DNA from: Saprospiraceae bacterium
GTDB taxonomy: Bacteria; Bacteroidota; Bacteroidia; Chitinophagales; Saprospiraceae
DNA: 64,000 nucleotides
Direction: 5' to 3'
Assembly: GCA_025055285.1 (NCBI GenBank)
Contig: JANWXM010000008.1
Span: 62,001 to 126,000 of the forward strand
The notes below the pieces were generated by a model. That model was not told the origin of the DNA, did no database searches, and saw only the letters and a program-made list of their open reading frames with translations. The position numbers and the translations under genes were made by a program. Below are positions 2,080 through 34,843 of this stretch, piece after piece; positions within the stretch are counted from its first letter, which is position 1, and each line of letters starts with the position of its first letter.

Positions 2080-2166
2080 ACATTCAGAGCAATTTGCAAC
2101 TATGGCCTGTAAGGTCAACCTCTCGAGACCATCTGATGCCGCGAAGGCCGAATTATGAGGCAGTAA

Positions 2167-3183
2167 TCATAGCTCTAACAGAAAGCCAATAGTGAAGTTG
2201 GCGTCCCAGTCAAAGATAAACCGACGACAACCCGTAGCATCAGCGATAGCCTTGTAGATGTTGAGTCCTCCTGCCTGCTTGTCGCCTTGAGCAGTATATG
2301 CCTCAGGAGCCTTGAGTACGGTATAGCGTTCCTTTCCGTTGCGCGTCTGCTTGGCCAGTTCGTAGGGCACACCGCCAATGATAAAGCACGTACTGCGCAA
2401 CTGCAAAGGAACGCGCATAGCCTTATCCTTAACTTCGCGATAGACAGCTTCGTCGCTAATACCTCTTTGGCGATACTTTGCACCAGGAAGTTCGACGCCT
2501 ACAATGCGGTTACCTTCCATCCAAGAAAGCTTAGTATTGCCTGAACCAATATCCACTACAAAGGCTTGATTAGCGTATTCCCTAGGCAGACAAGACCGCA
2601 AGGCCAACTGAGCCTCGCGTTCTGGGGATACTTCGTTGACTACGTAGCCTAAAGATTTTAGTTCACGCGAAATCTTTTCCGTGATAGGAACTTTTCGGGC
2701 TCCTGAACTAATGACGAAGTGAATGTTTTTAGCGCCCACGCCGTAGGCTAGCATATCGGCAATATAATTCTTCAGGCCTTTTCGAATGTCGTCATCAGTA
2801 GCCAGACCCTCATAAACTAAACTAGCGCCGTAATCCGCTTTTTCTAATTTCCAATTCTTACGCTCATCTACGCGAATAATGAAGGAGTTGAACCCTGTAG
2901 CGCCTAGCTCCACCACACCCCGAAGTACGCCGTTGATAGGAGCAGGTGGAGTGTAATTGAAGGTAGTTGAAGTACTGCCTCTACCCCAAGGTTCTGATTT
3001 TGGCGGAGGTGAAACCATTTCTTTAGCACCAGCATCCCCTTCATAGGTCGTCGTTATAGCAGCAGGTGAGTCGCTACCCACCATCTGCTTAAGCTGAGGC
3101 AAGAACGTTCTGATGCCGAAATAAACTCCGCCAACAATGAGCAATGTGATCAGCAATCGAGAAAATGTGGTTAGTCGTGCCAT
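2167..3183 (-). CDS. Membrane-anchored Ppx/GppA-like actin-fold protein
   Basis: The 338-residue protein has one N-terminal membrane segment (about 8-27) and a linker rich in Pro, Ser and Gly to about residue 80. A domain resembling the ASKHA (actin/Hsp70/sugar kinase) fold of exopolyphosphatases follows. Two phosphate-loop-like motifs are visible: VELGATGFNSFII (91-103) and DIGSGNTKLSW (211-221). SSGARKVP (159-166) lies between them, at the place of the connecting motif in Ppx/GppA. Such proteins bind nucleotides or polyphosphate, but the anchoring helix is unusual for true Ppx. I would not assign an enzyme activity. A possible -7 element lies 47 bases upstream. Confidence 0.55.
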   Translation of the reverse strand: MARLTTFSRLLITLLIVGGVYFGIRTFLPQLKQMVGSDSPAAITTTYEGDAGAKEMVSPPPKSEPWGRGSTSTTFNYTPPAPINGVLRGVVELGATGFNSFIIRVDERKNWKLEKADYGASLVYEGLATDDDIRKGLKNYIADMLAYGVGAKNIHFVISSGARKVPITEKISRELKSLGYVVNEVSPEREAQLALRSCLPREYANQAFVVDIGSGNTKLSWMEGNRIVGVELPGAKYRQRGISDEAVYREVKDKAMRVPLQLRSTCFIIGGVPYELAKQTRNGKERYTVLKAPEAYTAQGDKQAGGLNIYKAIADATGCRRFIFDWDANFTIGFLLEL

Positions 3184-3902: not shown

Positions 3903-6900
3903 TCAATCCACAATCGTCAGATCGCCTTTCATCAGGATCACCTGCCCGCTGGTGAGCTCCACTTCGGCCCACCAGACGAACACCGCCGGGTTCATGGGCT
4001 GACCGCGGAAGCGGCCGTCCCAGCCGTGTTTGGGAGTGTTCGGCTGAATGTTTTCCCGGCGAAAGACTAAGTTACCCCAGCGGTCGTAAATCTGCAGGGA
4101 GCGTATTCTCTGCACGGTATTGGGCGCGGCAAAGATCATGAAGACGTCGTTGCGGCCAGCGCCCTGGTTGGGGCTGATGGCGTTGGGCGCCCACAGGTTG
4201 GGATCGCCCACGCGCACGATGGTGCGGGCAGTGGCTTCGCAGCCTTCTCTGTTGACGACGCGCACCGTGTATTCGGTGGTGGTAAACGGCCGCGCAATGA
4301 CCACGTCGGGCCGGTTCGTCCGCGTAATGCTCTCCATGGGCGACCAGATGATGGTATCTATTTCGTAGGGCGGAAGGTTCACCAACGCCCGCAGCGTGTG
4401 CGACTGGCCAAACTCCAAGCGGATCTCCGGATCGAGTTTGACCGCGGGCTGAACAGGCGTTTTGAACACGAGCCACTGCTCATACTCGCAGCCGTTGGCG
4501 TCCTGCACCACAAGCCGGTACTGCCCCGGGTTGAGGTTGGCAAACTGATTGGCCGATAAGAACGTATTGCCGCCGTCAATGGAATACAGGTAAGGCCCAA
4601 CGCCGCCCTGCACTTCCTCGAAGCGGATGAGGCCTTTGCGGCCATCGCAGCCGGGTGGCTGACTGAACACTTTCAGGCCAGCCGGGTAGTTGGTGTTTTT
4701 CGTAACGACGGCGACGTCCGTAGCCGTGCAGCCGTTGAGCGTGTTGGTAACCAGCAAGGTATACGTCCCTGGCGCGTTCACCAATGGATTGGGCGCATTG
4801 GCGCCGGAGAGGATGTTGCCGCCCGCAGTCGTCCATTGGTAGCTGATGTTCGGCCCGGTAGAGGAGCCGTTGGCGTTGAGCGTGCCTTGCTCGACGGAGC
4901 AGGTGAGTTCAAAGTCGCCGCCAGCCTGAGCAACGGGCGGTTGCGTGTTCTGAAGCACCTGAGTAGAAGCCGTAGCGGTACAGCCGTTCTGTTGGTTGAG
5001 GATGACCAGGGCGTAATTGCCAGGCTGGTTTACTATGGGCGTCAGCGTCTGGCCGCCAGAAACGATGCCCGGTCCTGTCCAGGTGTACGTGTAGTGGCTG
5101 CCCTGAGCGCTGGCCGAGGCGTCGAGCGTCGTTTGTTTCACAGTACACGTCAGCAAAGCCGGCGCAGCAATGGCAATGGCCGGCTTTTGCGTGTTGACCG
5201 GCACACTGACCTGGGCCGTGCTGGTGCAGCCGTTGTAGTTGTCGGTAACGACAAGTAGGTACAGACCGCCGGCGTTGACGACTGGCGCAGCGGTGTTGGC
5301 ACCCGAGACAATGTTGCCGTTTTGCGTCGTCCAGGCGTAGCGCACGCCCTGACCACCGCCGCTGCCGAAGGCACTCAGGCTCACGGAAGTGCGCGCGCAG
5401 GTGATGGTGTCGGCCGCATTGACCACTGCTGACGGCGGCTGGATGTTTTGCGACACGTTCACCGTACGCTGAGCCGTGCAGCCGTTTTGGGTGTTGGTTA
5501 CGCGCAGGGTGTAGGCGCCCGGCGCATTCACCGTTGGCTGCGTGCTGGCAGCGCCAGCGACGATGTTGCCGCCAGAGGTCGTCCACTGATAAGTAAACTG
5601 CGGTCCTGCGCTGCTGGCCGAGCCGTTGAGGATAATTTCTTTGACCAGGCACGTCAGTTCCTGCGGCGCAGCAATGGCTGCTATGGGCGCTGTGGCGTCT
5701 TGCAAGACCTGCACAGAGGCCTCGCGCGTGCAGCCGTTCTGGATGTTGGTAACGACGAGCGTGTACGTACCTGGCGCATTTACGGTCGGCTGCAGGGTAT
5801 TCGCGCCCGCAATGATGTTGCCGTTGAGCGTTGTCCACTCATAGGTGAAGTTAGGCCCTGTACTACTGCCCGCACCGTTGAGTTGAAGCACAGGTGAGGT
5901 GCAGGTGAGCGTAACGGCGTTACCGGCAGAGGCGTCGGGCGGTGTGATGTCGCGCAGCACCGTTACCTGCACCGTATCAGCGCATTTGTTGTTGGTGTTC
6001 GTAACGATAAGCCGGTACGTACCCGGTTGGTTCACCGTGGGTATCAGCGTGTTAGCGCCCGAAAGGATGTTGCCGCCGCCCGAGGCCGTCCACTGGTAAG
6101 CGAACAGCGGGCCACTGCTGGAGCCGTTGCCGTTGAGTTGAGCCGTCGGGTTGGCGCAGGTCAGCACGGGCGGCGCGGCCACTACGGCTACGGGGCGCGC
6201 AGTGTTTTGAGTAACGAGCACCTGGTCGGTAGCCGAGCAGAAATTGGCGCTGTTCGTTACCACGAGCGTGTACACCCCTGGCGCATTCACGACCGGGTTG
6301 AGCGTGTTGGCGCCCGACACGATATTGCCGTTTTGCGTCGTCCATTGAATTTGCGCCGCGCTGCCGCCCAGATTAGTCGCCGTGCCGTTGAGGCTGAGCG
6401 AGGTGATGGCGCAGTTCAGCTCGGCGTTTGGGCCGGCGTCCACTACTGGCGTAAGTGTGTTTTGCACGACGACTGTGGAGGCAGTGGCCGTGCAGCCGTT
6501 GCTCAGGTTGGTAATGACTAAGTTGTATGTGCCCGGTCGGTTGACTATCGGGCTGGGCGTGTTGGCGCCCGAGACGAAGCCGCCGCCGATGGTTGTCCAC
6601 GAATAAGCAAAGTTGCTGCCCGAGCTACTGCCCGCTGTCGAGAGCGGCGTTTGCGTCAGCTGGCAATTGAGCACTGGCGGCGGAGCAATGACGGCCGTAG
6701 GCGGCGTGCGGTTGACGACGACGTTCACCGAGTCCACCGACGAGCAGCCGTTGTCCGGATTGGTTACGGTGAGCAGATAGACGCCAGGAGCATCCACCAC
6801 TGGGCTGAGGGTATTGGCGCCCGACACGATATTGCCGTTGGGCGTCGTCCAGGCGTAGAGGAAATTCGGCCCTACGCTGCTGCCTGCACCGTTGAGGGTA

Positions 6901-9900
6901 ACCGTATTGGCGGTGCAGGTGAGCTGGCGTTGAGGGCCGGCTTCGGCTTGAGGCGAGTTCTGGTCGAGCAAAATCTGGACGGATGCCGACGAGGTGCAGC
7001 CGTTTTGGGTGTTGGTTACGACGAGCACATAGGTGCCGGAGCGATCCACCTGCGGTGTCAGCGTGTTGGCGCCCGATAAAATGTTGCCGTTTTGGGTGCT
7101 CCACTGGTAGGTGAAGTTATTGCCCTGGCTGGAGGCTGTTCCGTTGAGCGTAAGCACGGGCTGAGCGCAGGAAATGACGGCAGGAGTGCCAGCGTTGGCC
7201 GCGGGCGGCGTCAGGTCTTCACTAACTATAATGGTGAACTGCGCTTCGCAATTATTGGCCGTGTTTAGCACGCGCAGGGTGTACTGACCGGGGCGATTGA
7301 CGATAGGCGTCAGCGTGTTGGCTCCGGAGACAATGTTGCCGTTTTGCGTCGTCCAGGTGTACTGCATACCCGGGCCAGTAGTGGAAGTCGTGGCGTTGAT
7401 TTGGACTTGCTTGACAGCGCACGTGAGCGGGCCGGGTACGCTGGCAGCGGCGACGGGCACGTTGTCGTCTTTATTGACTACCACGCTGGCCGTAGCCGTG
7501 CAACCGTTTTGGGTGTCGGTAACCAACAGCTGATACGTGCCGGGCGCATCCACGGTAGGCGTCAGGGTGTTGGCCCCAGAGGCGATGCTGCCGTTGGGCG
7601 TCGTCCATAAATACGTAAACTGCGGCCCTGTGCTGCCGCTGCCGTCCAAGACGGCGGTTACGGCCGAGCAGGTGAGCGTTTTGGAGCTGCCAGCGTTCGC
7701 CGTGGGCAAGGTCGTATTTTGCGTAACCTCGACAGCGTCCGTAGCCGTGCAGCCATTCGCCGTGTTGGTAATGAGCAAGGTGTATGTACCGGGCTGGTTG
7801 ACCACAGGCGCGAGCGTGTTGGCGCCCGAGACGATGTTGCCGCCCGGGCTGCTCGTCCATTGGTACGTCAGGTTGGGGCCGCTGCTGGAAGCGGTGGCGT
7901 CGAGTGTGAGCGCCGTCTGGATGCAGTTCAGCACGCCATCAGGGCCAGCAGCAGCCGTAGGCGGCGTTACATCGGCGGGAATGACGACGTTGGACGTCGC
8001 CGAGCAGCCGTTGCCGGTGTTGAGCACTTGCAGCGTGTATGTGCCCGGCTGGTTGACCACAGGTGTCAGCGTATTAGCGCCCGAGACAATGCCTGGCCCT
8101 GTCCAGGTGTAGGCAAAGTCAGCGCCCTGGCTAGAGGCCGTGCCGTCTAAGGTCAGCTGCGTTGTCGCGCAGGTGAGCGTATCGGCTGGGCCGGCATTTG
8201 CCACAGGCAAGCTGTTGTCGGCCGTTACGGCAGCGCTGGCTGAAGCCGTACAGCCGTTTTGGGTGTTGGTGACCACGAGCGTATAGGTACCCGTAGCGTT
8301 TACAACAGGAGTAAGCGTATTCGCCCCGCTGACGATGTTGCCGTTGGCTGTACTCCATTGATAGGCGAAATTGCCGCCCTGGCTGGAGGCTGTTCCATTC
8401 AAAGTAATGGAAGTGTTGGTGCAACTCAGCACCTCCGGCGGCGCCACGGAAGCGACGGGCAGGGTCGTGTTCCGGCTAACGGCCACAGAAGCCGTGGAGG
8501 TGCAGCCCGTTTGGGTGTTGATGACGGTGAGGACGTAAGTTCCCGGGGCATTCACTACGGGCGTAAGCGTGGTGGCGCCGGAGACGATGTTGCCGTTTTG
8601 CGTCGTCCAAAGGTAGCTAAACTGCTGGCCTTGCGAGGAGCCCGTGCCGTTGAGGCTCAGCTGCGGAGCGGCGCAGGTGAGGGTTTGCGCCGGCCCGGCG
8701 TTGGCGGTGGGGAACGTTTGCTGGCTGACCACCTGTACAGTGGCGGTGGCCGTGCAGCCGTTCTCGATGTTTTGCACCGTCAGCACGTACGTACCTACCT
8801 GGTTCACCACAGGCGTGAGCGTCAGTTCGCCTGACACGATGTTGCCGTTTTGCGTCGTCCACAGGTAAAAGAACGGGTAGCCTTCCGAAGAGCCGTTGCC
8901 GTTCAGCGTGGTCTGCGGGTTCTGGCAGGTGATCGTCGCCTGAGGAACGGCTACTGCTACCGGCGGCGTGATGTCTAAGTTCACCGTAGCAGTTGTGCTA
9001 GCCGAGCAGCCATTGGCTGTATTGGTAACGACGACGGTATAAACGCCTGGCTGTCTCACTTCGGCGACGGGCGTGCCCTGACCGCTGAGGATGCGGTTGG
9101 CAGGCGACCATTGGTAGGCTAAATTGCTGCCCGAAGAGCCGCTGGCGTCTAATTGTACCGTTTGGAACACACAGTTGAGCGTTTGGGGCGGAAAAATGTT
9201 GGGAATAGGGTAAACAATGTTGTCCTCCACCCAAACCTCATCGGTGTCGGTGCAGCCGTTTTGGGTGTTGGTAACAATGAGTGTATAGTTGCCGAAAGCG
9301 TTGACCACGGGCGTCAGCGTGTTGGCGCCCGAAACGATGTTGCCTGGATTGGCCACCCATTGGTAAATGATGTTGGGGCCTGTGGACGAGCCAGTGCCGT
9401 TGAGTTGTACGCTGGGATTTGTACACGTGAGCTCGCGGTCGGCGCCGCCAAAGGCGACGGGCGCGTTCTGGTCGGCCAGGATGTTGACGCTGCTCTGGCG
9501 CGTACAGCCGTTGACGACATTGGTAACGACGAGGAAGTACTGCCCAGGCGCGTCAATGACCGGGTTGAGCGTATTTTCGCCCGAGACAATGTTGCCGTTA
9601 GGCGTCCACCATTCATAAGTGAAATTCGGGCCGGAAGAGCCACTGCCCTGCAAGGTGAGTTGCGAAACGGTGCAGCTGAGCGTGGCCGTTGGGCCGGCGT
9701 TGGCGTTGGGCAGCACCTTGTTCTGTTGCACTACCACGCTGGCGGTGGCTGTGCAGCCGCTGGCTATGTTGCTCACCAACAGGTTGTACGTGCCGCCCTG
9801 GTTGATGATAGGCGTTGGGCTGTTCTGGCCGCCGACGAAGTTGCCGCCTACCGTCGTCCAGGTGTAGGTGATGTCGGGGCCTTGGGTAGAGGCTGAGGCG

Positions 9901-12900
9901 TCGAGATCAATTTCCGGCGTGTAGCAGTTGATGATGCCCGGCGGCGCAATGACGGCCACCGGCTGGTCGAAGTTGGCTTCGATGTGCACGAAGTCCGACG
10001 CGCTGCAGCCATTGGCCGTGTTGGTAACGACCAGATAGTAAACGCCCGGCTGGTTAATGGTCGGTGCATACGTGTTGGCGCCCGAAACAATGTTGCCTGG
10101 ATTGGCCGTCCATTGAATGACGATGTTCGGCCCTGTGCTGCCCGAGCCTTGCAGCTGCAGCGTAGGGTTGACGCAGTTGAGCAGAAATTCCGGCCCGGCG
10201 TTGGCGTTGGGGAAATTCTGGTTGCTGTTGACGTTGACCGTTATCGAGCGCGTGCAGCCGTTGTCCTGGTTGGTAACGACCAGCGTGTACTGGCCGGGCG
10301 CGTCCACCGTGGGCGTCAGGGTATTTTCGCCCGAGACAATATTGCCGTTGGGCGTCGTCCATTGGTAGGTAAACTCCGGCCCTTGCGACGAGCCGTTGCC
10401 GTTGAGCACAATCTGCGGATTCTGGCATGTCAGGATGGGCGGAGGCGCTACCGTTGCCGTCGGCTGGGTGGTGTTGGCCGTAACGGTTACCGAGGCCGTA
10501 GCCGTGCAACCGCTTTCGGCGTTGGTGATGGTCAAGAAGTACGTGCCCGGCTGGTTCACGTTGGGATAGGGCGAGTTGGCCCCGCCCACAATGTTGCCCG
10601 GATTGGCCACCCAGTTGAAGACGTAGGGCGGCCCTTGCGACGAGCCACCGGCGTCAATTTCCACAATCGGCGTGTAGCAATTGATGACGCCGGGCGGCGC
10701 AATGACGGCCACCGGCGTGTCGAAATTGGCGTTGACGGTTACTTCCGACGTCGAAGAGCAGCCATTTTGGGTGTTGGTTACGGTTAAAATGTAGGTACCG
10801 GCCTGGTTGACGACAGGCGTGTAGGTGTTGCCCCCGCTCACAATGTTGCCCGGGTTGGGCGTCCATTGAATGCTGAAATTGGGCCCGCTGCTGCCCGAGC
10901 CTTGCAGCGAAATGGTCGGGTGGGTGCAATTCAGCGTCCGCTCCGGCCCGGCGTTGGCGGCAGGGAAATTCTGGTTGCTCGTAACGCTCACCGTTACCGA
11001 GCGCGTGCAGCCGTTATCCTGGTTGGTAACAACCAGCGTGTACTGGCCGGGCGCATCCACCACGGGGGTAAGCGTGTTTTCGCCCGAAACGATGTTGCCG
11101 TTGGGCGTTGTCCACGCGTATGTGAACTGCGGCCCCTGCGACGAGCCGTTGCCGTTTAGCGTGATTTGCGGGTTCTGGCATGTCAGCAAAGGCGGCGGCG
11201 CTGCGACAGCGGTGGGCAGCGTCAGGTCTGAGGTAACCGTCGTGCTGGCCGTGGCCGTGCAGCCGTTGTCGGTATTGGTTACGGTAACGGTGTAGTTTCC
11301 GGCCTGGTTGACCGTTGGGTTGGGCGAGTTGGCGCCGCCCGAAAAGCCGCCCGGATTGGCCGACCAGCTGAAGGTGAATTCCGGCCCTTGGGATGAGCCG
11401 CTGGCGTCGAGCTCGATGGTAGGATTGTAGCAGTTGATGACGCCTGGCGGCGCAATGACGGCCGTGGGCGGTGTGAAGTTTTCCGAGACCGTTACCTGGG
11501 ATGTCGAAGAGCAGCCGTTTTGGGTGTTGGTTACGGTTAAAATGTAGGTACCGGGCTGGTTGACGACGGGCGTGTAGGTGTTGCCGCCGCTCACAATGTT
11601 GCCGGGGTTGGGCGTCCATTGAATGGTGAAATTCGGCCCGCTACTGCCCGAGCCTTGCAGCGAAATGGTCGGGTTGGTGCAATTCAGCGTCCTGTCTGGC
11701 CCGGCGTTGGCGTTCGGGTAGTTCTGGTTGCTGTTGACGTTCACCGTGGCGGAGGCCGTACAGCCGTTGTCGTTGTTCGTAACGACGAGCGTATACGTGC
11801 CGGCTTCGTCCACCACCGGATTGAGCGTGTTTTCGCCCGAGACGATGTTGCCCGGATTGGCCGTCCATTCGTAGGTGAATTGCGGTCCCTGCGAGGAGCC
11901 GTTGCCGCTAAGGGTGATCTGTGGCTGCGCGCACGTGAGCACCGCTGGCGGCGCTACGACAGCCGTGGGCGGCGTCAGGTTCGAGGTTACGCTTACACTG
12001 GCAGTGGCCGTGCAGTTGTTGTCGGTGTTCGTTACCGTGATGGTGTACGTGCCGCCGGCGTTCACCGTGGGGTTGGTTCCGTTTGTACCGCCGGTGAAAT
12101 TGCCGCCGTTGCCGGCGCTCCACTGGTAGGTGAAGTTATTGCCCTGGGAGGAGCTGCTGGCATCCAGTTCAATTTCGGGCGTATAGCAGTTCACTACGCC
12201 CGGCGGCGCAATGACGGCCGTGGGCGGGTCGGTATTGCCGCTGACGGTTACGCTGGCCTCGTTGGTGCAGCCGTTGGTCGTGTTCGTGATGACCAGCGTG
12301 TACGTGCCCGCCTGGTTGACGGTGGGCGTGTAACTGTTCGTGCCGCCGGTGAAATTGCCGCCGTTGGTGCTCCACACAAACGTGAAATTCGGCCCCTGCG
12401 ACGAGCCGTTGGCGTTGAGCGTTACGGTGGGTGTCGGGCAGCTGATGTTTTGCGGCGGCGCAATGACCACCGTGGGTGGCGTAATGTTTTGCTGCACCGT
12501 CACAGCAGCCGTAGCCGTGCAGCCGTTGTCGCTGTTGGTTACCGTCAGCACGTACGTACCGGGCGCGTTGACGGTGGGTTGCAGCGTAGTTTCACAGCAG
12601 GTGATGCCCGGGCCATTCCATTCGTAGGAAAAGTTTGGGCCTGTGGACGAGCCGTTGCCGTTGAGCGTAATTTCCGGAGTACTGCAGGTGATTGGCCCTG
12701 GCACTGAGGCCACAGCCGTCGGCGGCGTCAGGTCGGCGGTGATGGTTACGGAGGCCGTTACTGTGCAATTGTTGGCGTCGCTGACGGTAACGGTGTACGT
12801 TCCAGCAGCGGAGAAGGTCGGGTTGGGCCCGCCGGAGCCGCCGCTCCAGTTGTAAGTGTAGCCCGGTGTGCCGCCCGCCACGGTTACTTCGGCGCTGCCG

Positions 12901-15197
12901 GTGGGGTGCAGGCAGTCTATGTTGCCGGTGTTTTGTGCCGAGGCGGTCAGGGCGGGCGGTTCGGTCAGTTCCACGCTTTCCGTTTCCGTACAGCCCTGGC
13001 CATTGGTAACGGTGACGGTGTAGGTGCCCGGCCCCAGCCCTGTAGGATTGGCGCCGTTGAAGCCATGCGCCCAAGCATAGGTGAATGGCCCGTTTCCGCC
13101 GGAGGCAGAGGCCTGGATAGAGCCGTTGTTGGCGCCGTTGCAGGTAGGATTGGTGGGCGTCAGGGTAACCGTTACGTCTATTTCGTTCAGCGTTACCGTG
13201 CCGGTGGCCGTGCCCGTACAGCCGCTTTGGGTAGCCACGCTGACCAATGAGTACGTGCCTGGTTCGTTGACCGTGTACGTCGTGGGCGTCTGTGAAAAGG
13301 TATGCGTCTGCGTGTTGCCGTTGTGGTTGATTTCCACTGTCCAGGGGCCTTGGCCGGTGAAGGTTAGCGTCAGGTTAACGGGTTGCGGGTTGTTTTCACA
13401 GAAAAAACCCGAGCCGCTCAGATTAGCCGTGGGGCGCGGCTCCAGCGTTACGATGGCTTGAGCCGTCGAGGTGGCCCCACACAGGTCGGTTACCGTAACC
13501 GTATAGGTGTTGGTGCCCGGCGTGTTCACTGTGATGGAGGGGGTCGTAGCACCGGTGCTCCACGCATAGGTGTAGGGCGGTTGCCCGGGTTGAACAAAAC
13601 TGGGCGTCAGCGTGGTGCTGGACACGCCGCACAGGGTTACGTCGTTCAGATCTACCTCCAGTGGTGGCTTATCGTTGATGTAAAACGTGATTTCAATCTG
13701 GTCGCACGAGCAGGGGTTGCTCAGTGTAATAACGATGGTTTCCTGGCCTTCGGTGATGTTATCTATAAAGACATCTACCGGGATTTCGATGAAGTTGGAA
13801 CCTGCCGGTATGGTTACTGAATTAGGCAGGGTAGCGTAGTCTACGCCGGGCGTAGCGGTACCGCTTACGGTAAAGTTGACCACCAATGGGTCACTGTTGC
13901 CACCACTGCCGCGTATAAAGCGGATAAAGCTGCCCGAGCAGCCCTCAATGGCGTATTGATTATTATTTGGGTAAATGGGCACTGCTTTGACCACTCCGCC
14001 AGCATTGAAGGAGTTGGCCTTGAGAAACACAGCAGAGAAGAGCAACCCGTCCGCAATATCGCAGATAGCTAGCTTAATGTGGTACGTCGAGCAGGGTATC
14101 AGTCCTTGAGCCGTAGCGGTCAGCACCGTCGTCCAGCCGTCTAAGGCGCATTCAGGAATACAGCAAGCACCGACATTCTGGCAAGGACTAAAGTTGTTGT
14201 TATTAACATAAAAGGCCGTATTCGTAGTGTGGTTGACATTATTGATAGAGACGGGCGGGTTTCCGTTCACAGGAAGGACAGCAATGTTTTGAGAGCCATT
14301 AATGCCTGGTCCGCTGATAAAAAAACCGAACACGTCGTTGTACTGGCTGTTGGCGTACTCGCAATATTCTTCCGACCCGAAGACATAGTCGAATGTGACC
14401 GTCTCTGCTGTAGGTGTGAAGTCAAATTCTAGTTTAATGACGTCCCATTGGTTTCCGTTGGAGAGTGTGGCCAAATCTGGGTCATCGGGCGAGTTTACAT
14501 TAAAACCTGCCGTGTTGGCCGAGGTATTGGAGGCGTTGTTCGGCCCAGGCAAGCTGTTCACGTTGCCCGTTGCCATCACAATGCCGTTCGCAATGCCAAT
14601 ATTCGTCGCTCCATTGCTGAATGTCCCTCGCGATTGCGTCGGCCCTTGGGCCGTGATATTCGACACCTGAAAGCAGTTGCCGCCGATGAGCGTGTTCACC
14701 ATGTTAGTCGGCGTCGTACCGCCCGTTACAGATAAATTGGCCTCGGGGCCACCGACGTGCTTAATGAAATTTTCTAAAAAAGCCCTCGCCTCCGGACAAT
14801 CCACGCAACCTAGCGAAAGTCGCATAGCGAATGGCCCACTTTGGCCTTCCTCGCCAACCTGTAAGTAAAAAGTAACACACGTTGAAGGCGCTACAAATTG
14901 CCGATGCTGCGGCCGGTCAGGGCGCGACATCCGATACGCTTCCTTTTCTAACCCTGGGTCGGCCATGCGCAAGACCAGCGGCGTCCGGTCACCCAAGGCT
15001 TGCGGAACCGCCACAGCGGAATATGTCGTGCCCGGTATCAAACCGCAGACTTCAATCGTATTGGCGCCGTAAACGACTTCCAACGGAATGCGCTGGCGCT
15101 GCCGATCCAACTGCACTGACACGTAGTTTTGTGCCAAAAGCGGCTGAAAAACAGCCCAAAACAGCGAGAACAGCAAAAATGTCAAGCGATTACCCAT
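3903..15197 (-). CDS. Giant T9SS type-B surface protein: choice-of-anchor-L plus 32 Ig/PKD-like repeats
   Basis: This 3,764-residue protein should be exported by Sec and the type IX system and attached to, or released from, the cell surface. In order: signal peptide 1-22; an N-terminal region to about 165; a choice-of-anchor-L domain (about 167-398, with the family hallmark VTFDYVFGSEEY); a Calx-beta-like segment (about 405-510); two PKD/Ig-like domains; a SprB repeat (about 685-745, CNGANNGSI and GTYTVTVTNGQGC); a related module; then 32 tandem repeats of about 84 residues (about 823-3511). The protein ends in a gliding-motility-associated (type B) sorting domain, recognised by APNAISPNQGAGRNDVF, IYDRWGNLVF and GWDGRFRGQPM. 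It is probably an adhesin or motility-related filament protein. The gene is single, with intergenic DNA on both sides. Its GC content looks much higher than that of its neighbours. Confidence 0.9.
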   Translation of the reverse strand: MGNRLTFLLFSLFWAVFQPLLAQNYVSVQLDRQRQRIPLEVVYGANTIEVCGLIPGTTYSAVAVPQALGDRTPLVLRMADPGLEKEAYRMSRPDRPQHRQFVAPSTCVTFYLQVGEEGQSGPFAMRLSLGCVDCPEARAFLENFIKHVGGPEANLSVTGGTTPTNMVNTLIGGNCFQVSNITAQGPTQSRGTFSNGATNIGIANGIVMATGNVNSLPGPNNASNTSANTAGFNVNSPDDPDLATLSNGNQWDVIKLEFDFTPTAETVTFDYVFGSEEYCEYANSQYNDVFGFFISGPGINGSQNIAVLPVNGNPPVSINNVNHTTNTAFYVNNNNFSPCQNVGACCIPECALDGWTTVLTATAQGLIPCSTYHIKLAICDIADGLLFSAVFLKANSFNAGGVVKAVPIYPNNNQYAIEGCSGSFIRFIRGSGGNSDPLVVNFTVSGTATPGVDYATLPNSVTIPAGSNFIEIPVDVFIDNITEGQETIVITLSNPCSCDQIEITFYINDKPPLEVDLNDVTLCGVSSTTLTPSFVQPGQPPYTYAWSTGATTPSITVNTPGTNTYTVTVTDLCGATSTAQAIVTLEPRPTANLSGSGFFCENNPQPVNLTLTFTGQGPWTVEINHNGNTQTHTFSQTPTTYTVNEPGTYSLVSVATQSGCTGTATGTVTLNEIDVTVTLTPTNPTCNGANNGSIQASASGGNGPFTYAWAHGFNGANPTGLGPGTYTVTVTNGQGCTETESVELTEPPALTASAQNTGNIDCLHPTGSAEVTVAGGTPGYTYNWSGGSGGPNPTFSAAGTYTVTVSDANNCTVTASVTITADLTPPTAVASVPGPITCSTPEITLNGNGSSTGPNFSYEWNGPGITCCETTLQPTVNAPGTYVLTVTNSDNGCTATAAVTVQQNITPPTVVIAPPQNISCPTPTVTLNANGSSQGPNFTFVWSTNGGNFTGGTNSYTPTVNQAGTYTLVITNTTNGCTNEASVTVSGNTDPPTAVIAPPGVVNCYTPEIELDASSSSQGNNFTYQWSAGNGGNFTGGTNGTNPTVNAGGTYTITVTNTDNNCTATASVSVTSNLTPPTAVVAPPAVLTCAQPQITLSGNGSSQGPQFTYEWTANPGNIVSGENTLNPVVDEAGTYTLVVTNNDNGCTASATVNVNSNQNYPNANAGPDRTLNCTNPTISLQGSGSSGPNFTIQWTPNPGNIVSGGNTYTPVVNQPGTYILTVTNTQNGCSSTSQVTVSENFTPPTAVIAPPGVINCYNPTIELDASGSSQGPEFTFSWSANPGGFSGGANSPNPTVNQAGNYTVTVTNTDNGCTATASTTVTSDLTLPTAVAAPPPLLTCQNPQITLNGNGSSQGPQFTYAWTTPNGNIVSGENTLTPVVDAPGQYTLVVTNQDNGCTRSVTVSVTSNQNFPAANAGPERTLNCTHPTISLQGSGSSGPNFSIQWTPNPGNIVSGGNTYTPVVNQAGTYILTVTNTQNGCSSTSEVTVNANFDTPVAVIAPPGVINCYTPIVEIDAGGSSQGPPYVFNWVANPGNIVGGANSPYPNVNQPGTYFLTITNAESGCTATASVTVTANTTQPTATVAPPPILTCQNPQIVLNGNGSSQGPEFTYQWTTPNGNIVSGENTLTPTVDAPGQYTLVVTNQDNGCTRSITVNVNSNQNFPNANAGPEFLLNCVNPTLQLQGSGSTGPNIVIQWTANPGNIVSGANTYAPTINQPGVYYLVVTNTANGCSASDFVHIEANFDQPVAVIAPPGIINCYTPEIDLDASASTQGPDITYTWTTVGGNFVGGQNSPTPIINQGGTYNLLVSNIASGCTATASVVVQQNKVLPNANAGPTATLSCTVSQLTLQGSGSSGPNFTYEWWTPNGNIVSGENTLNPVIDAPGQYFLVVTNVVNGCTRQSSVNILADQNAPVAFGGADRELTCTNPSVQLNGTGSSTGPNIIYQWVANPGNIVSGANTLTPVVNAFGNYTLIVTNTQNGCTDTDEVWVEDNIVYPIPNIFPPQTLNCVFQTVQLDASGSSGSNLAYQWSPANRILSGQGTPVAEVRQPGVYTVVVTNTANGCSASTTATVNLDITPPVAVAVPQATITCQNPQTTLNGNGSSEGYPFFYLWTTQNGNIVSGELTLTPVVNQVGTYVLTVQNIENGCTATATVQVVSQQTFPTANAGPAQTLTCAAPQLSLNGTGSSQGQQFSYLWTTQNGNIVSGATTLTPVVNAPGTYVLTVINTQTGCTSTASVAVSRNTTLPVASVAPPEVLSCTNTSITLNGTASSQGGNFAYQWSTANGNIVSGANTLTPVVNATGTYTLVVTNTQNGCTASASAAVTADNSLPVANAGPADTLTCATTQLTLDGTASSQGADFAYTWTGPGIVSGANTLTPVVNQPGTYTLQVLNTGNGCSATSNVVIPADVTPPTAAAGPDGVLNCIQTALTLDATASSSGPNLTYQWTSSPGGNIVSGANTLAPVVNQPGTYTLLITNTANGCTATDAVEVTQNTTLPTANAGSSKTLTCSAVTAVLDGSGSTGPQFTYLWTTPNGSIASGANTLTPTVDAPGTYQLLVTDTQNGCTATASVVVNKDDNVPVAAASVPGPLTCAVKQVQINATTSTTGPGMQYTWTTQNGNIVSGANTLTPIVNRPGQYTLRVLNTANNCEAQFTIIVSEDLTPPAANAGTPAVISCAQPVLTLNGTASSQGNNFTYQWSTQNGNILSGANTLTPQVDRSGTYVLVVTNTQNGCTSSASVQILLDQNSPQAEAGPQRQLTCTANTVTLNGAGSSVGPNFLYAWTTPNGNIVSGANTLSPVVDAPGVYLLTVTNPDNGCSSVDSVNVVVNRTPPTAVIAPPPVLNCQLTQTPLSTAGSSSGSNFAYSWTTIGGGFVSGANTPSPIVNRPGTYNLVITNLSNGCTATASTVVVQNTLTPVVDAGPNAELNCAITSLSLNGTATNLGGSAAQIQWTTQNGNIVSGANTLNPVVNAPGVYTLVVTNSANFCSATDQVLVTQNTARPVAVVAAPPVLTCANPTAQLNGNGSSSGPLFAYQWTASGGGNILSGANTLIPTVNQPGTYRLIVTNTNNKCADTVQVTVLRDITPPDASAGNAVTLTCTSPVLQLNGAGSSTGPNFTYEWTTLNGNIIAGANTLQPTVNAPGTYTLVVTNIQNGCTREASVQVLQDATAPIAAIAAPQELTCLVKEIILNGSASSAGPQFTYQWTTSGGNIVAGAASTQPTVNAPGAYTLRVTNTQNGCTAQRTVNVSQNIQPPSAVVNAADTITCARTSVSLSAFGSGGGQGVRYAWTTQNGNIVSGANTAAPVVNAGGLYLLVVTDNYNGCTSTAQVSVPVNTQKPAIAIAAPALLTCTVKQTTLDASASAQGSHYTYTWTGPGIVSGGQTLTPIVNQPGNYALVILNQQNGCTATASTQVLQNTQPPVAQAGGDFELTCSVEQGTLNANGSSTGPNISYQWTTAGGNILSGANAPNPLVNAPGTYTLLVTNTLNGCTATDVAVVTKNTNYPAGLKVFSQPPGCDGRKGLIRFEEVQGGVGPYLYSIDGGNTFLSANQFANLNPGQYRLVVQDANGCEYEQWLVFKTPVQPAVKLDPEIRLEFGQSHTLRALVNLPPYEIDTIIWSPMESITRTNRPDVVIARPFTTTEYTVRVVNREGCEATARTIVRVGDPNLWAPNAISPNQGAGRNDVFMIFAAPNTVQRIRSLQIYDRWGNLVFRRENIQPNTPKHGWDGRFRGQPMNPAVFVWWAEVELTSGQVILMKGDLTIVD
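4690..12731 (-). repeat. 32 tandem ~252-bp repeats coding for ~84-residue Ig/PKD-like modules
   Basis: Counting by eye gives 32 consecutive modules. Each follows the pattern PxAxxxPxxxLTC, LxGxGSSxGPxFTYxW, GNIVSGANTLxPVVxxPG, TYTLVVTNxxNGCTxxA. Each keeps two cysteines, one after the first strand and one near the end. Modules 3-5, 6-8 and 9-11 match each other in register, making a threefold copy of a three-module block of about 750 bp; module 12 begins a fourth copy. DNA similarity is high in the GANTLTPVV and GCTATA segments, so the array could change length by recombination and may be hard to assemble from short reads. Confidence 0.85.
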
Positions 15198-30459: not shown

Positions 30460-32853
30460 ATGATTCGTGTTCATCTTCTGTATTCCCCCGAGAATCGGGA
30501 TTTAGCAGACCGCCTGACAGCCGATTTAGGACGTGCTGGTCTTACATTCGAACATTACACACTTTTGTCAGACGATAAGCCTGGGCATTTGGCTGCTCGC
30601 ATAGCAGTTATAGAAGGGCCCGTCCTTTGGTTGTTGACCGACAACTTTCTGAAAGACCCCCTGTGCATGGCGGGTATATGGCGTGCCTATCAAGCTTTGC
30701 TCGGGCGAGGACACCTTTTGACGGTGGTAGCTCCTGGGCGTCAGCCGCAAGCAGACGGATCCTACCGGCCTGTGCCTACTTCCTTTGAGCGAGCTGGCGA
30801 GGTGATCAAGTATATGAATTACTGGCAAGAAATTTTCCTTAAAAGCACTGACCGCCTGCGAACAGCGCCGTTAGAGCTACGCGAAGTTTACGACCGCGAA
30901 GTGGAAGCATATCGCCTCATTGCCAATGACGTTAGCGAGCTGCTCTCTGCCTTGCGCGAGAGCGGATACGTGCGGTGGGAAGCATTACAAGCCGACCATT
31001 ACAAGCTCTTCTTCCAGCGCTTTGGCCTCGTAGACCGCTATCCTGCCTATCGAGAAATTGCTTCGTTGGATGTTGAGGCGCCACCCATACCTGCTGCACA
31101 AACACCTCCTGCGGGCCCATTTATTCCACCACCAGTGCTTTCTGGTCCCCTTATACCCCAGCCCGTAGAAGCCTCTGGTGAAAAGATGGCTCAAGAGCCA
31201 GTGACGGAGTCTTCTCCTGCATCTCTCAAACCAGAAGCCGAAGCCGAGGCTAGCGAGGTGCGCATCCGCCAAGCCATCCGCGACGCCTGGACATGGATCG
31301 AAAAAGGCTATCCTCAGCGAGGCCTTGACATGCTGCGTCAGTTGACGGAGCAGCATCCTCAGCATGCTATTGCCATGGCCGAATATCACCGGGCTCGTGC
31401 CCATTTCACTGAAGCCGAACCACTTCCCGAACGTCCAGTGCCAGAAATAGCTTCGCCTCAAGCCCAACAAGAGCAAAAAACCGAAGTACCCCCTCCTCCA
31501 GAGCAAGAGCTCTCAGCCCCCTCCAACGGATTCGCACCCACAGAGGCTGACGCCTACAATGCTATGGGCGATAATGCCGCTGCAAAAGGCGACTACCTCT
31601 TGGCTAAGTACTGTTGGAATCGCGTGGCTGAACTTGACCCTGCTTATCCACGCGTTTTCCGGAAGCTCGCTGACCTAGCAATAGCGCATTTGGAGAAGGA
31701 GAACAGCGATGAAGTGCTATCCTATATTGAAGAGGCTCTGGCCGCTGAGCCCAACGACGCAGAACTGCATTATCGATACGCGCTGGTATTGCGCGACCAA
31801 ATGGGTCAACCTGAACGCGCCTATCAACTGCTCGATACTGTCGTAGCGCTCCAACCCGACTGGGCAGAAGCTTGGCTTACGCTAGCAGAAGTTACTCACC
31901 AATCGGGGAATCTCCAACAGGCACAAGAACTGTATCAACACGCCTGTCTCCTCGACCCAAAACTCAAGAGCAAAGAGCGCGATGCCCATTTCGCTTTGCC
32001 TACAGAGAAAATATCTGCTTCTTCGCCCTCGCCTACCTTATCGCTCCAGTCCGCGGAGGAAGTAGCCTTTTCGCAGCCTGCGCAGGTGCTTACAGTGCTC
32101 ATCACTGGCGCTACTTCGGGAATCGGAAAAGCTACAGCTGAGGTATTTGCGCGCCACGGTCATCGTCTCTTGCTTGTTGGTCGCCGGGCCGAACGCCTAG
32201 CAGATATACGCGCACGCTTTGCTCAGCAGTATCCTCATGCTACAGTATTCGAGCTACCTCTCGATATACGCGATGCAGACGCGGTTATGGCTCACCTCAC
32301 CAATTTGCCCGAAGAATGGACAGAAATAGACGTCCTAATCAATAACGCTGGTCTAGCTAAAGGGCTAGCACCTATTCACGAGGGCAATCTGGAGCATTGG
32401 GATGCAATGATAGATACTAACATTAAGGGATTGCTCTACGTCACACGTGCTGTTGTGCCCGGCATGGTGCAACGACGCCGAGGCCATATCATTAACGTGA
32501 GTTCGAGCGCAGGGAAAGAAGTCTATCCCAATGGCAATGTTTATTGTGCAACAAAATTCGCGGTAGAGGCTCTAACGCGCGGTATGCGTTTAGATCTGCA
32601 CGCCTATGGTATTCGCGTCAGCCAAGTTAGCCCAGGTCATACGGAGGACACGGAATTTGCCCTTGTCCGCTTTGACGGCGATGCTGAACGAGCCCGTATT
32701 TATGAAGACTTTCAGCCTTTGAAGGCCGCTGATGTGGCAGAAGCCATTTATTTCATCGCTACAAGACCTCCGCATGTGAACGTGCAAGATATCTGGCTTT
32801 ACAGCACTCAGCAAGCATCTGCTATGCTGATCGACCGCTCAGGACGAAAGTAG
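30460..32853 (+). CDS. TIR-like / TPR / short-chain dehydrogenase fusion protein
   Basis: In 797 residues the protein joins three parts. Residues 1-92 resemble a TIR domain (IRVHLLYSPENRDLADRLT, then GPVLWLLTDNFLKDPLC). Residues 100-200 are helical, and 205-270 are Pro-rich. After a helical segment and a second Pro-rich linker, residues 360-500 form about three TPR units. Residues 543-797 are a complete short-chain dehydrogenase of the YdfG-like classical type: TGATSGIG (549-556), RRAERL as expected for NADP, NNAG (628-631), and the active-site Ser/Tyr695/Lys699 in YCATK. TIR NADases have a Glu three residues after the conserved Cys; here the segment is LCMAG, so the Glu is absent. The start is ATG 30460, where the TIR strand begins; ATG 30400 would add 20 unlikely residues. 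No partner gene is apparent. Confidence 0.75.
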   Translation: MIRVHLLYSPENRDLADRLTADLGRAGLTFEHYTLLSDDKPGHLAARIAVIEGPVLWLLTDNFLKDPLCMAGIWRAYQALLGRGHLLTVVAPGRQPQADGSYRPVPTSFERAGEVIKYMNYWQEIFLKSTDRLRTAPLELREVYDREVEAYRLIANDVSELLSALRESGYVRWEALQADHYKLFFQRFGLVDRYPAYREIASLDVEAPPIPAAQTPPAGPFIPPPVLSGPLIPQPVEASGEKMAQEPVTESSPASLKPEAEAEASEVRIRQAIRDAWTWIEKGYPQRGLDMLRQLTEQHPQHAIAMAEYHRARAHFTEAEPLPERPVPEIASPQAQQEQKTEVPPPPEQELSAPSNGFAPTEADAYNAMGDNAAAKGDYLLAKYCWNRVAELDPAYPRVFRKLADLAIAHLEKENSDEVLSYIEEALAAEPNDAELHYRYALVLRDQMGQPERAYQLLDTVVALQPDWAEAWLTLAEVTHQSGNLQQAQELYQHACLLDPKLKSKERDAHFALPTEKISASSPSPTLSLQSAEEVAFSQPAQVLTVLITGATSGIGKATAEVFARHGHRLLLVGRRAERLADIRARFAQQYPHATVFELPLDIRDADAVMAHLTNLPEEWTEIDVLINNAGLAKGLAPIHEGNLEHWDAMIDTNIKGLLYVTRAVVPGMVQRRRGHIINVSSSAGKEVYPNGNVYCATKFAVEALTRGMRLDLHAYGIRVSQVSPGHTEDTEFALVRFDGDAERARIYEDFQPLKAADVAEAIYFIATRPPHVNVQDIWLYSTQQASAMLIDRSGRK

Positions 32854-33339: not shown

Positions 33340-33552
33340 CTATTGAGGTATTGTGCCGCCAAAAGTAGAATTCCAAGGAAAAACTTGCCCAATGGGCTTG
33401 TTCGATGTTTTCCCTCCCTCTACTTTGCGCATGTCTTCTTTGTCCAAAACCTGCGAGGTCTCCTGCACTTTGTCCAGCCGACTCTTCTGATTTTCGGGCT
33501 GCTGGTCTTTTGACGTAGAGGTGTTCGATTTCTTATTAAAAAAGGAGAGCAT
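33340..33552 (-). CDS. Small double-glycine-leader peptide, RiPP-precursor-like
   Basis: The 70-residue hydrophilic peptide has no signal sequence. Its middle, LDKEDMRKVEGGK (36-48), matches the Bacteroidota double-glycine leader pattern (L-x-K-E-x-M-x-K-V-x-GG) cut by C39-type peptidase/ABC exporters or found before modified natural-product cores. The remaining 23 residues (TSNKPIGQVFPWNSTFGGTIPQ after Lys48) would be the core: no Cys, several Ser/Thr, one Trp, a second GG. The gene is supported by a near-consensus promoter 23 bases upstream and a strong hairpin downstream. No radical-SAM, lanthipeptide or C39 transporter gene is in the window, so modification and export enzymes would act in trans. 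It could also be a non-modified leader-like peptide. Confidence 0.6.
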   Translation of the reverse strand: MLSFFNKKSNTSTSKDQQPENQKSRLDKVQETSQVLDKEDMRKVEGGKTSNKPIGQVFPWNSTFGGTIPQ

Positions 33553-33940: not shown

Positions 33941-34843
33941 ATGAGTATCTACTCGATCGGCGATCTAGAACGCCTTACAGGCATCAAAGCTCATACCATT
34001 CGAGTATGGGAGAAGCGATATCGGCTTATTTTACCCGCCAGAACGGATACAAACATTCGTTATTATACAGATGAGAATCTTCGGCTGCTTTTTAACATTG
34101 CTTTATTAAAGCGAGCAGGCTACAAGATCAGCAAGTTAGTTAAGATGCGGCCGGAGGAGATTGCTTCTTTGGTAGCTGAACTTACGCGATCGAACTTAAC
34201 GCTCGATACGAGAAACGAGACGCTGGTATTGGCCATGCTAGACTTAGATGAGAGCGCCTTCGAACGGGTGTTTCTCAACTATCAGTGGGAGCATGGTTTT
34301 GAGCGAACAATGCTCGACGTGATTTATCCCTTTTTGGAAAAGCTAAACGAGCTGTGGTTAACGCGAAGTATCTCTTTAGCTCACGAGAAATTTATTACCC
34401 AAATCATTCGCCGGAAGTTGATGGCGGCCATTGATGGCGAAGTAACCAAACCGAAGCCAAATGCGCCGCGGTTTTTGTTGTACCTACCAGAAGACGAGCG
34501 CCAAGAGCTCGTGCTTCTTTTCCTATTTTATCTGCTTCGACGCCGAGGTTTTCGGGTACTTTATCTTGGGTCTGGGGTTTCGATTGGTGACCTTCAGGAC
34601 GCCGTCCAGAATTTTAAGCCCCATTTCGTGTATACTATCCTCAATGCACCTCCCTCGCGGCAATCTGTTCAAGGGTATATAGAAAAAGTATCGAAAGTTC
34701 TGGGTGAAGCCCAGTTGCTCGTGACAGGAATTCAGGTGTTTATGAATGGGCATCCTTTGCCTCCGAACGTAAAGCGGCTGAATGGCTTGCCGGAAACACT
34801 TCAATTGTTGGAACAATGGAAACCGACTGAGGCTCATCCCTGA
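33941..34843 (+). CDS. MerR-family regulator with degenerate B12-binding domain (CarH/LitR-like)
   Basis: The 300-residue protein has a MerR-type winged helix at the N-terminus (YSIGDLERLTGIKAHTIRVWEKRY, then NIRYYTDENL). A four-helix B12-binding cap (about 90-165) and a Rossmann-like cobalamin domain (about 176-285) follow, as in the light-sensing CarH/LitR repressors. In those proteins the cap carries W-x9-EH and the cobalamin domain carries the lower-ligand His. Here the cap reads W139...E149-K150 and the loop reads DERQEL (185-190), so both His positions are replaced, by Lys and Gln. The repressor fold is kept, but adenosylcobalamin sensing is probably lost or altered. CarH relatives control carotenoid genes; none is nearby. 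The promoter gives a near-leaderless mRNA. Confidence 0.8.
   Translation: MSIYSIGDLERLTGIKAHTIRVWEKRYRLILPARTDTNIRYYTDENLRLLFNIALLKRAGYKISKLVKMRPEEIASLVAELTRSNLTLDTRNETLVLAMLDLDESAFERVFLNYQWEHGFERTMLDVIYPFLEKLNELWLTRSISLAHEKFITQIIRRKLMAAIDGEVTKPKPNAPRFLLYLPEDERQELVLLFLFYLLRRRGFRVLYLGSGVSIGDLQDAVQNFKPHFVYTILNAPPSRQSVQGYIEKVSKVLGEAQLLVTGIQVFMNGHPLPPNVKRLNGLPETLQLLEQWKPTEAHP

What the first reader, a model, noticed from the sequence alone, without database searches (positions are those of the whole stretch)
30460..32853. TIR-like domain fused to TPR repeats and a complete short-chain dehydrogenase
The three parts are read directly: an N-terminal TIR-like fold, a TPR middle, and an SDR with all catalytic residues and an NADP-type Arg pair. 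TIR domains of bacterial immunity enzymes consume NAD; SDRs use NAD(P). Joining both in one chain is unusual. The TIR part lacks the catalytic Glu (LCMAG where C-x-x-E is expected), so it may bind a nucleotide or act as an assembly domain instead of a NADase. The protein could be a sensor whose output is a redox enzyme. It may also be an unrecognised defence or signalling protein.
Basis: partly seen in the sequence, partly recalled or inferred. Interest (0 to 1): 0.75.

Follow-up and report, generated by a model that had tools for sequence, protein, structure and literature searches.

The report
Dead TIR domain fused to dehydrogenase
In one family of environmental bacteria, an immune-type TIR domain that has lost its catalytic residues has become a lasting front end, with a TPR repeat region, of a metabolic dehydrogenase, probably to assemble or recruit the enzyme.

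Summary
Window 30460-32853 encodes one 797-aa protein: TIR-fold domain with helical extension, disordered linker, TPR array and a complete YdfG-type SDR. It is no assembly error: the order recurs across Saprospiraceae. In an order-level sample each of 37 family genomes has one close SDR match, fused in 21, stand-alone in 16. Both forms often follow the same TlpA-like gene (17/27 fused, 14/16 stand-alone), so the TIR-TPR module sits in front of a resident enzyme gene. The TIR fold is confirmed by profile search (MyD88, E 8e-6) and a confident model (pLDDT 93.7, TIR structures Z about 10). The catalytic Glu is present in 3 of 83 fused proteins but in 16 of 20 SDR-less relatives; the Asp at the end of strand B goes with it. 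The TIR is still under purifying selection. Best reading: a TIR stripped of NADase residues, kept as an assembly or recruitment module of a metabolic dehydrogenase. Defence is not supported. Five literature searches aimed at such a fusion found no report (open-licence library only). Function is inferred, not shown.

The parts
30460..32853 (+). Whole gene: TIR-extension-linker-TPR-SDR protein, 797 aa from ATG 30460 (an in-frame ATG also at 30400)
   Evidence: ORF list; family alignment starts here
30460..30774 (+). TIR core, residues 1-105 (strands 3-7, 29-33, 55-59, 86-90 plus hairpin 93-105); the border to the extension is approximate, as Pfam TIR_2 in relatives reaches further
   Evidence: AF2 pLDDT 93.7; VIA-align Z 10.3 to RPS4 and Roq1 TIR; profile hit to MyD88 8e-6; TIR_2 range in L090
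30556..30558 (+). Codon of Tyr33, where SDR-less relatives mostly have Asp (end of strand B)
   Evidence: D in 17 of 20 SDR-less rows and 3 of 80 fused rows
30673..30675 (+). Codon of Gly72, where the catalytic Glu of NADase TIRs is expected (C-x-x-E)
   Evidence: E in 3 of 83 fused and 16 of 20 SDR-less rows; the column equals the Glu replaced in the entry titled RUN1 E100A, 7s2z (alignment, title)
30775..31047 (+). Helical extension, residues 106-196, with Tyr118 and Trp122 (80 of 80 fused rows each)
   Evidence: secondary structure; conservation
31048..31539 (+). Linker with a short helical stretch, variable in length between relatives
   Evidence: pLDDT under 50 at 206-246, 248-263, 318-358; alignment
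31540..31995 (+). TPR array, residues 361-512
   Evidence: Pfam TPR families; helices 362-510
32092..32850 (+). YdfG-type short-chain dehydrogenase, residues 545-797
   Evidence: adh_short 8e-54; NCBIfam YdfG model best, 8.5e-73 but below its cut-off; PDB 3asu 6.9e-64
32104..32127 (+). TGATSGIG dinucleotide-binding motif (549-556)
   Evidence: its first glycine 56/56
32182..32187 (+). Arg575-Arg576, NADP-type pair (that meaning is recalled)
   Evidence: R 56/56 and 54/56
32419..32421 (+). Active-site Asn654
   Evidence: N 56/56
32503..32556 (+). Stretch with active-site Ser682, Tyr695 and Lys699
   Evidence: S, K 56/56; Y 55/56

Best explanation
A resident YdfG-type, probably NADP-dependent dehydrogenase of Saprospiraceae carries an N-terminal TIR-TPR module. 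The module probably derives from the Bacteroidota TIR proteins that share the same helical extension; two such proteins also carry TPR repeats but no SDR. After or around the fusion the TIR lost the residues that make NADase TIRs work (Asp at the end of strand B, the Phe-Met pair before helix B, Glu of helix C), while its structural core and helical extension stayed conserved. Proposed mechanism (inferred): the TIR is a non-catalytic, self-associating or partner-binding module. SDRs of this type are tetramers (recalled), so each enzyme core would display several TIR-TPR arms on flexible linkers; TIR-TIR and TPR-partner contacts would cluster the enzyme or recruit it to a partner, much as TIR adaptors assemble signalling complexes, but with a metabolic enzyme as the passenger. 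Shown here: domain identity, conservation of the fusion, loss of the NADase residues, selection on the TIR, intact SDR residues. Inferred: oligomerisation, recruitment, substrate and any regulation.
For: TIR homology and fold. Same architecture in all 26 relatives read first and in 83 distinct sequences in all, counting the window. One SDR match at E<=1e-60 in each of 37 family genomes of the order sample (up to 13 candidates scored per genome), fused in 21 and stand-alone in 16; the 21 are those with the TIR. Same TlpA-like gene upstream of both forms (Pfam). Glu in 3 of 83 fused against 16 of 20 SDR-less rows; Asp33 17, Phe44 16 and Met45 16 of 20 SDR-less rows against 3, 12 and 0 of 80 fused; S60, L64, C69, M70 and W122 kept in 59, 77, 69, 69 and 80 of 80 fused. 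dN/dS in the closest pair L027-L028: TIR 0.042, SDR 0.038, linker plus TPR 0.115. The profile's closest PDB relatives are MyD88 TIRs, an adaptor; PMC9153377 (passages) says NADase activity was not found for mammalian TLR2 or TIR adaptor(s). TIR-extension-TPR proteins without SDR exist elsewhere in the phylum (L090, L091).
Against: No direct evidence of self-association or of any partner. The full-length model gives no domain arrangement (pTM 0.38) and has stretches under pLDDT 50 even inside the SDR. 16 of 37 family genomes do without the module, so the enzyme does not need it. L057 keeps both Asp33 and Glu72 and might still be an NADase; L229 and L183 keep the Glu alone, L235 and L200 the Asp alone. 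Four of 20 SDR-less rows do not show the Glu either (two Lys, two ending before the column). In more distant pairs the TIR changes faster than the SDR (dN/dS 0.10-0.22 against 0.07-0.12, and window-L027 identity 72% against 87%). G652 keeps TIR-TPR at the TlpA-like locus without an SDR, and no SDR at E<=1e-50 was found in that genome, so the module may have a job independent of the enzyme. One origin of the fusion is not rejected (p-AU 0.43) but not shown: the label needs 4 changes on the joint tree and 8 on the SDR tree, where well-supported branches alone force 2.
Confidence: 0.5

Rival explanations
1. The TIR pocket still binds NAD(P)+, ADP-ribose or a TIR-made signal without cutting it and switches the attached dehydrogenase on or off (cofactor-sensing regulatory domain).
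For: TIRs and SDRs share NAD(P) chemistry (general knowledge). The fused TIR keeps the SDNFLK-CM segment beside the old active site. Five other TIR_2 proteins lie in the own genome, four over the cut-off.
Against: The Asp, Phe-Met and Glu positions drift to many residues, unlike a preserved ligand site. No arrangement bringing TIR and SDR together is predicted.
Confidence: 0.2
2. A defence protein: the TIR-TPR part senses infection and the SDR is the toxic output.
For: Related TIR-extension proteins carry Schlafen AlbA_2 or STAND-like/WD40 parts typical of conflict systems (L089, L092). PADLOC SduA matches the helical extension at E 0.058.
Against: One SDR per family genome, with a conserved neighbour in both fused and stand-alone forms; intact SDR active site; PADLOC otherwise matches only the TPR region; the four neighbouring ORFs tested are not defence or mobile genes.
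Confidence: 0.06
3. The TIR is still an NADase through other residues, and the fusion couples NAD breakdown to NADP-dependent reduction.
For: L057 keeps Asp and Glu; L229 and L183 keep Glu.
Against: 80 of 83 fused proteins lack the Glu. PMC11374754 (passages) lists loss of NADase activity for AbTir D167 (strand B) and E208 changes, and for TcpC D203 and E244.
Confidence: 0.05
4. The fusion is a neutral passenger: the TIR-TPR stretch is tolerated but does nothing.
For: 16 of 37 family genomes lack it; the linker varies; the TIR changes faster than the SDR in distant pairs.
Against: TIR dN/dS 0.033-0.042 in the two closest pairs, as low as the SDR; Tyr118 and Trp122 invariant in 80 of 80.
Confidence: 0.05
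5. Assembly error or chance join of separate genes.
For: None found.
Against: Same architecture in many independent assemblies, including a single-contig genome (G173) and a two-contig one (G617).
Confidence: 0.01

Closest known systems
YdfG, NADP-dependent 3-hydroxy acid dehydrogenase (NCBIfam NF007829); nearest PDB sequence 3asu (the E. coli enzyme, from memory)
   Same: SDR domain over its full length; best NCBIfam model 8.5e-73, PDB 3asu 6.9e-64; stand-alone orthologues in the same bacterial family
   Different: 244.8 bits against a cut-off of 411, so not an equivalog; substrate unknown; carries a 540-residue TIR-TPR front end
Bacteroidota TIR-extension-TPR proteins (L090, L091)
   Same: Same TIR subtype and helical extension, followed by TPR repeats
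   Different: No SDR; keep C-x-x-E and the Asp; other families of the phylum
Animal TIR adaptors (MyD88, TIRAP)
   Same: MyD88 TIRs are the closest PDB relatives of the family profile, TIRAP far weaker; TIR adaptors reported without NADase activity (PMC9153377, passages)
   Different: Animal immune signalling; no SDR or TPR; an analogy for mode of action only
Group 6 bacterial TIRs of PMC7075850 (often N-terminal TIR with C-terminal TPR, mainly actinobacterial; passages seen)
   Same: N-terminal TIR followed by TPR repeats
   Different: The group's motifs as given in the passage (-RDFFVSY-, BB loop -WDAVPG-) are not those of this protein; no SDR mentioned in the passages seen

Membership tests
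TIR domain superfamily | TIR (flavodoxin-like) fold | tested here: met
   AF2 pLDDT 93.7; 49 of the 50 VIA rows are TIR or SEFIR proteins (all but row 49, a receiver domain; Cat1, RPP1, SPARTA and SARM1 counted as TIR partly from knowledge), Z up to 10.3; profile to MyD88 8e-6
TIR domain superfamily | Pfam TIR_2 gathering score | tested here: not met
   Window domain 14.3 bits against 28; homology rests on the family profile and the fold
Catalytic (NADase) TIRs | Glu of helix C (C-x-x-E) | tested here: not met
   Gly72 in the window; Glu in 3 of 83 fused
Catalytic (NADase) TIRs | Asp at the end of strand B | tested here: not met
   Tyr33 in the window; Asp in 3 of 80 fused. Equating it with AbTir D167 is by its place in strand B, not by direct alignment
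Catalytic (NADase) TIRs | NAD+ hydrolysis | not testable with these tools
   needs an assay
TIR adaptors / scaffolds | Homotypic TIR assembly | not testable with these tools
   no complex prediction or experiment available
Classical SDR | TGxxxGIG motif and Asn-Ser-Tyr-Lys tetrad | tested here: met
   G, N, S, K 56/56, Y 55/56; window intact
YdfG equivalog (NF007829) | Score above the curated cut-off | tested here: not met
   244.8 against 411 bits
YdfG-type enzyme | NADP-dependent oxidation of 3-hydroxy acids | not testable with these tools
   Arg pair suggests NADP; substrate not inferable
TPR protein | Tandem TPR motifs above Pfam cut-off | tested here: met
   TPR_14, TPR_2, TPR_19 and others above cut-off
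Known anti-phage defence system | Convincing match to a PADLOC model outside the TPR repeats | tested here: not met
   Four matches at E<=1: three in the TPR region (best 6.5e-5), SduA at 0.058 over the helical extension

The most novel reading that the evidence does not exclude
A bacterial family has domesticated an immune-type TIR-TPR module, stripped of NADase residues, as a permanent assembly or control module of a core metabolic dehydrogenase: a TIR scaffold working in metabolism rather than immunity, with living intermediates (Asp and Glu kept in L057; Glu alone in L229 and L183) and a reverse case (TIR-TPR kept, SDR gone, in G652) that let the transition be followed.
Probability: 0.4. 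Interest if true: 0.72.

Novelty: new variant of a known kind. Interest (0 to 1): 0.52.

Why it matters
TIR domains are studied mostly as immune switches and NAD-consuming enzymes. A family-wide case in which the TIR has lost the catalytic residues, yet stays under selection on the front of an NADP-type metabolic enzyme, would show that the TIR can serve as a plain assembly part outside immunity. It also gives a natural series (NADase-like TIR-TPR proteins, fused proteins with and without Glu, stand-alone enzyme) in which loss of catalysis can be separated from scaffold function.

Tried and rejected
Single-sequence searches were uninformative for the N-terminus: full-protein Pfam and phmmer against PDB (best E 0.22, not TIR). 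Foldseek alone gave no match at E<=0.001; its top match was a TIR at 1.3e-3, with unrelated rows among the next ones. The VIA second look, restricted to Foldseek's candidates, separated TIRs clearly. The plasmid collection had no relative. Rfam found nothing in the window.

Assembly error was rejected by relatives. Defence was rejected as first choice. One shared operon for all members was rejected: the TlpA-like neighbour is missing in 10 of 27 fused loci, among them the window and its three closest relatives (L027, L028, L032) and the group L070-L073, L075, L076, where a thymidylate-kinase-like ORF is next door (kinase name read from sequence, not tested in Pfam).

A single origin of the fusion was neither shown nor rejected. 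dN/dS of the more distant pairs is saturated (several dS undefined); the values that exist are all below 0.25.

Sampling. Loci were chosen by score and by genus, not at random. In one search, of 112 distinct rows 83 have the SDR in the same held frame. The other 29: 20 SDR-less proteins (16 with Glu; L094 and L096 with Lys in a CYEKE-type motif; L093 and L095 ending before the column), L222 (TIR-TPR without SDR, Asn), and 8 stretches cut by the locus edge before the SDR (7 with a non-Glu residue, 1 without the column). The SDR domain was scored in the 56 of 83 whose retained copy holds nearly all of it. In one search I used 80 of 83 fused rows (at least 150 aligned residues) and 14 SDR-less rows; these 14 came from a list I had made by hand of the 16 with Glu (L092 and L097 dropped as short), so '14 of 14 with Glu' there is by choice. 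One search repeats the count with all 20 SDR-less rows and is the one quoted. The SDR-less rows were found by likeness to the fused profile. 'One SDR per genome' rests on up to 13 scored candidates per genome at E<=1e-60.

Literature. Five searches aimed at such a fusion or at TIR proteins in this family, three on related matters. each listed one paper holding all terms (PMC5080296, PMC8228183); neither was opened. Seen as passages: PMC9153377, PMC7075850, PMC11374754, PMC8195603 ('dehydrogenase' and 'SDR' do not occur in its text). The rest were seen as search listings only. The library holds open-licence papers only.

Full report
What is there. The frame at 30460-32853 is open throughout and encodes 797 residues. 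Pfam finds an SDR (adh_short 8e-54) and TPR repeats; no TIR is among the 25 of 30 families shown for the single protein. With the first 200 residues, relatives were found in 20 other genomes of the order sample (21 of 198 counting the own genome), all in the own family. A pattern scan of genome contigs gave 30 loci, of which six, all Saprospiraceae assemblies, match over the full length (L027-L032, best segments 36-71% identical); the other 24 match only TPR or SDR parts. In all 26 relatives read first, one frame carries both ends.

Is it TIR? Yes. A profile of the 27 N-terminal domains hits MyD88 TIR structures at E 8e-6 and other TIRs only at 0.16 and weaker. 19 of 27 rows match Pfam TIR_2 at E<=1, best 8e-7; the window row has only 0.06. 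AF2 on seven rows gave pLDDT 93.7 and pTM 0.88. VIA-align puts plant and bacterial TIRs on top (RPS4 Z 10.3 at 3.7 A over 150 residues; Roq1 10.3; TcpB 10.2; PdTIR 10.2), and 49 of its 50 rows are TIR or SEFIR proteins. Foldseek's own E-values are weak, best 1.3e-3. Strands A to D are in TIR order; then come a hairpin and long helices (112-135, 138-168, 173-187). The border between TIR core and extension is approximate, since Pfam TIR_2 in relatives runs on to around the Trp122 segment.

The active site. Glu stands in the C-x-x-E column in 3 of 83 fused proteins and in 16 of 20 SDR-less proteins of the same profile family; of the other four, two have Lys there (CYEKE-type motif) and two end before it. 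The column is the catalytic Glu: phmmer aligns the SDR-less L203 to RUN1 with Glu on Glu, and to the entry titled RUN1 E100A (7s2z) with Glu on Ala (title). Asp33, Phe44 and Met45 occur in 17, 16 and 16 of 20 SDR-less rows but in 3, 12 and 0 of 80 fused rows, whereas S60, L64, C69, M70 and W122 are kept in 59, 77, 69, 69 and 80 of 80 fused rows. L057 alone has both Asp33 and Glu72. PMC11374754 (passages) lists AbTir D167 in strand B and E208 as needed for NADase activity; identifying Asp33 with D167 is my inference from its place at the end of strand B.

The enzyme half. Active-site positions are intact in 55 or 56 of 56 near-full SDR domains. The nearest NCBIfam model is YdfG, below cut-off; the nearest PDB chain is 3asu. 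In the order sample each of the 37 family genomes has exactly one match at E<=1e-60 (up to 13 candidates scored per genome); its frame is 730-1159 aa in 21 and 257-293 aa in 16, and the 21 are those with the TIR. Matches listed outside the family lie in frames of 221-379 aa; the list was cut before its end. One search finds the N-terminal profile in 244 of 398 family genomes; that count includes some SDR-less TIR proteins, as one search shows for G151, G123, G143 and G184.

Gene neighbourhood and origin. Upstream on the same strand, mostly directly, lies a TlpA-like gene (AhpC-TSA 8.8e-11 in L029) in 17 of 27 fused loci and 14 of 16 stand-alone loci. Of the 43 family loci, 20 also hold an about 180-aa ORF and 10 a DctA-like transporter (transporter name read from sequence). 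So fused and stand-alone genes are orthologous, and the TIR-TPR stretch lies in frame in front of a resident gene. The window and its three closest relatives lack this neighbour. On an SDR tree the fused label needs 8 changes, of which well-supported branches force 2; on a tree of SDR, TlpA-like and the 180-aa ORF it needs 4 (31 rows), and a single fused clade is not rejected (p-AU 0.43). Outside the family the same TIR with extension is joined to TPR repeats alone (L090, L091), to Schlafen AlbA_2 (L089) and to WD40 repeats with a STAND-like middle (L092; STAND read from sequence). The TIR-TPR part probably came from this pool.

Selection. In the close pair L027-L028 dN/dS is 0.042 for TIR with extension, 0.038 for SDR and 0.115 for linker plus TPR; L027-L032 gives 0.033, 0.043 and 0.104 (dS near or above 1, so rough). 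In more distant pairs the TIR changes faster than the SDR (0.10-0.22 against 0.07-0.12 where defined; window-L027 identity 72% against 87%). A non-catalytic TIR kept under such constraint points to a structural or binding role. Among fused proteins Tyr118 and Trp122 are invariant (80 of 80), and T107, N120, Q123 and R152 are kept in 67-76 of 80 but occur in at most 1 of 14 SDR-less rows, a candidate new interaction surface.

Against and loose ends. G652 keeps the TIR-TPR half (840 aa) beside the TlpA-like gene without the SDR and has no SDR match at E<=1e-50, whereas G728 of the same genus has TIR and (cut) SDR matches in frames of the same length, 752 aa, on one contig: either the module has its own function or this is recent decay. 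The full-length model has no reliable inter-domain geometry (pTM 0.38) and weak stretches inside the SDR. Nothing here shows oligomerisation, binding or catalysis.

Verdict. Its parts are each of a known kind; the combination, and a TIR retired from catalysis onto a metabolic enzyme, is a new variant. The literature searches named under Tried and rejected found no report of it, within an open-licence library.

Noticed in passing
L222 (G652:C58:51600-55300), 594-3116 -: TIR-extension-TPR protein of 840 aa without SDR, TlpA-like ORF just upstream; no close SDR found in that genome.
   Followed up: partly
window 33340-33552 -: 70-aa ORF with LDKEDMRKVEGG followed by a short tail, which looks like a double-glycine leader precursor peptide (motif recalled, not tested).
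   Followed up: no
window 33941-34843 +: MerR-type regulator with a B12-binding_2 domain, possibly of the CarH/LitR light-sensing type (recalled).
   Followed up: no
window 3903-15197 -: 3764-aa protein with PKD, Ig-like and SprB repeats and a CHU_C type IX secretion signal.
   Followed up: no
window 60326-63964 - and 57698-60076 -: SprB-repeat protein with a weak Por_Secre_tail match near its N-terminus (residues 13-37), and a neighbouring PKD-rich protein.
   Followed up: no
L089 4278-5513 + and L092 191-4159 +: Same TIR subtype joined to Schlafen AlbA_2, and to a STAND-like NTPase (read from sequence) with WD40 repeats; both keep C-x-x-E.
   Followed up: partly
L190, L191, L192, L195, L198: In Saprospiraceae, C-x-x-E TIR-extension proteins of 440-550 aa; Pfam found only TIR in the four tested (L195 not tested). 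L190-L192 show a hydrophobic, membrane-like segment after the TIR (read from sequence).
   Followed up: partly
L029 3823-5904 and equivalents: Recurring gene run before the SDR or the fusion: about 180-aa ORF (weak PcrA_UvrD_tudor match, E 0.006) and TlpA-like gene, with a DctA-like transporter further up in some.
   Followed up: partly
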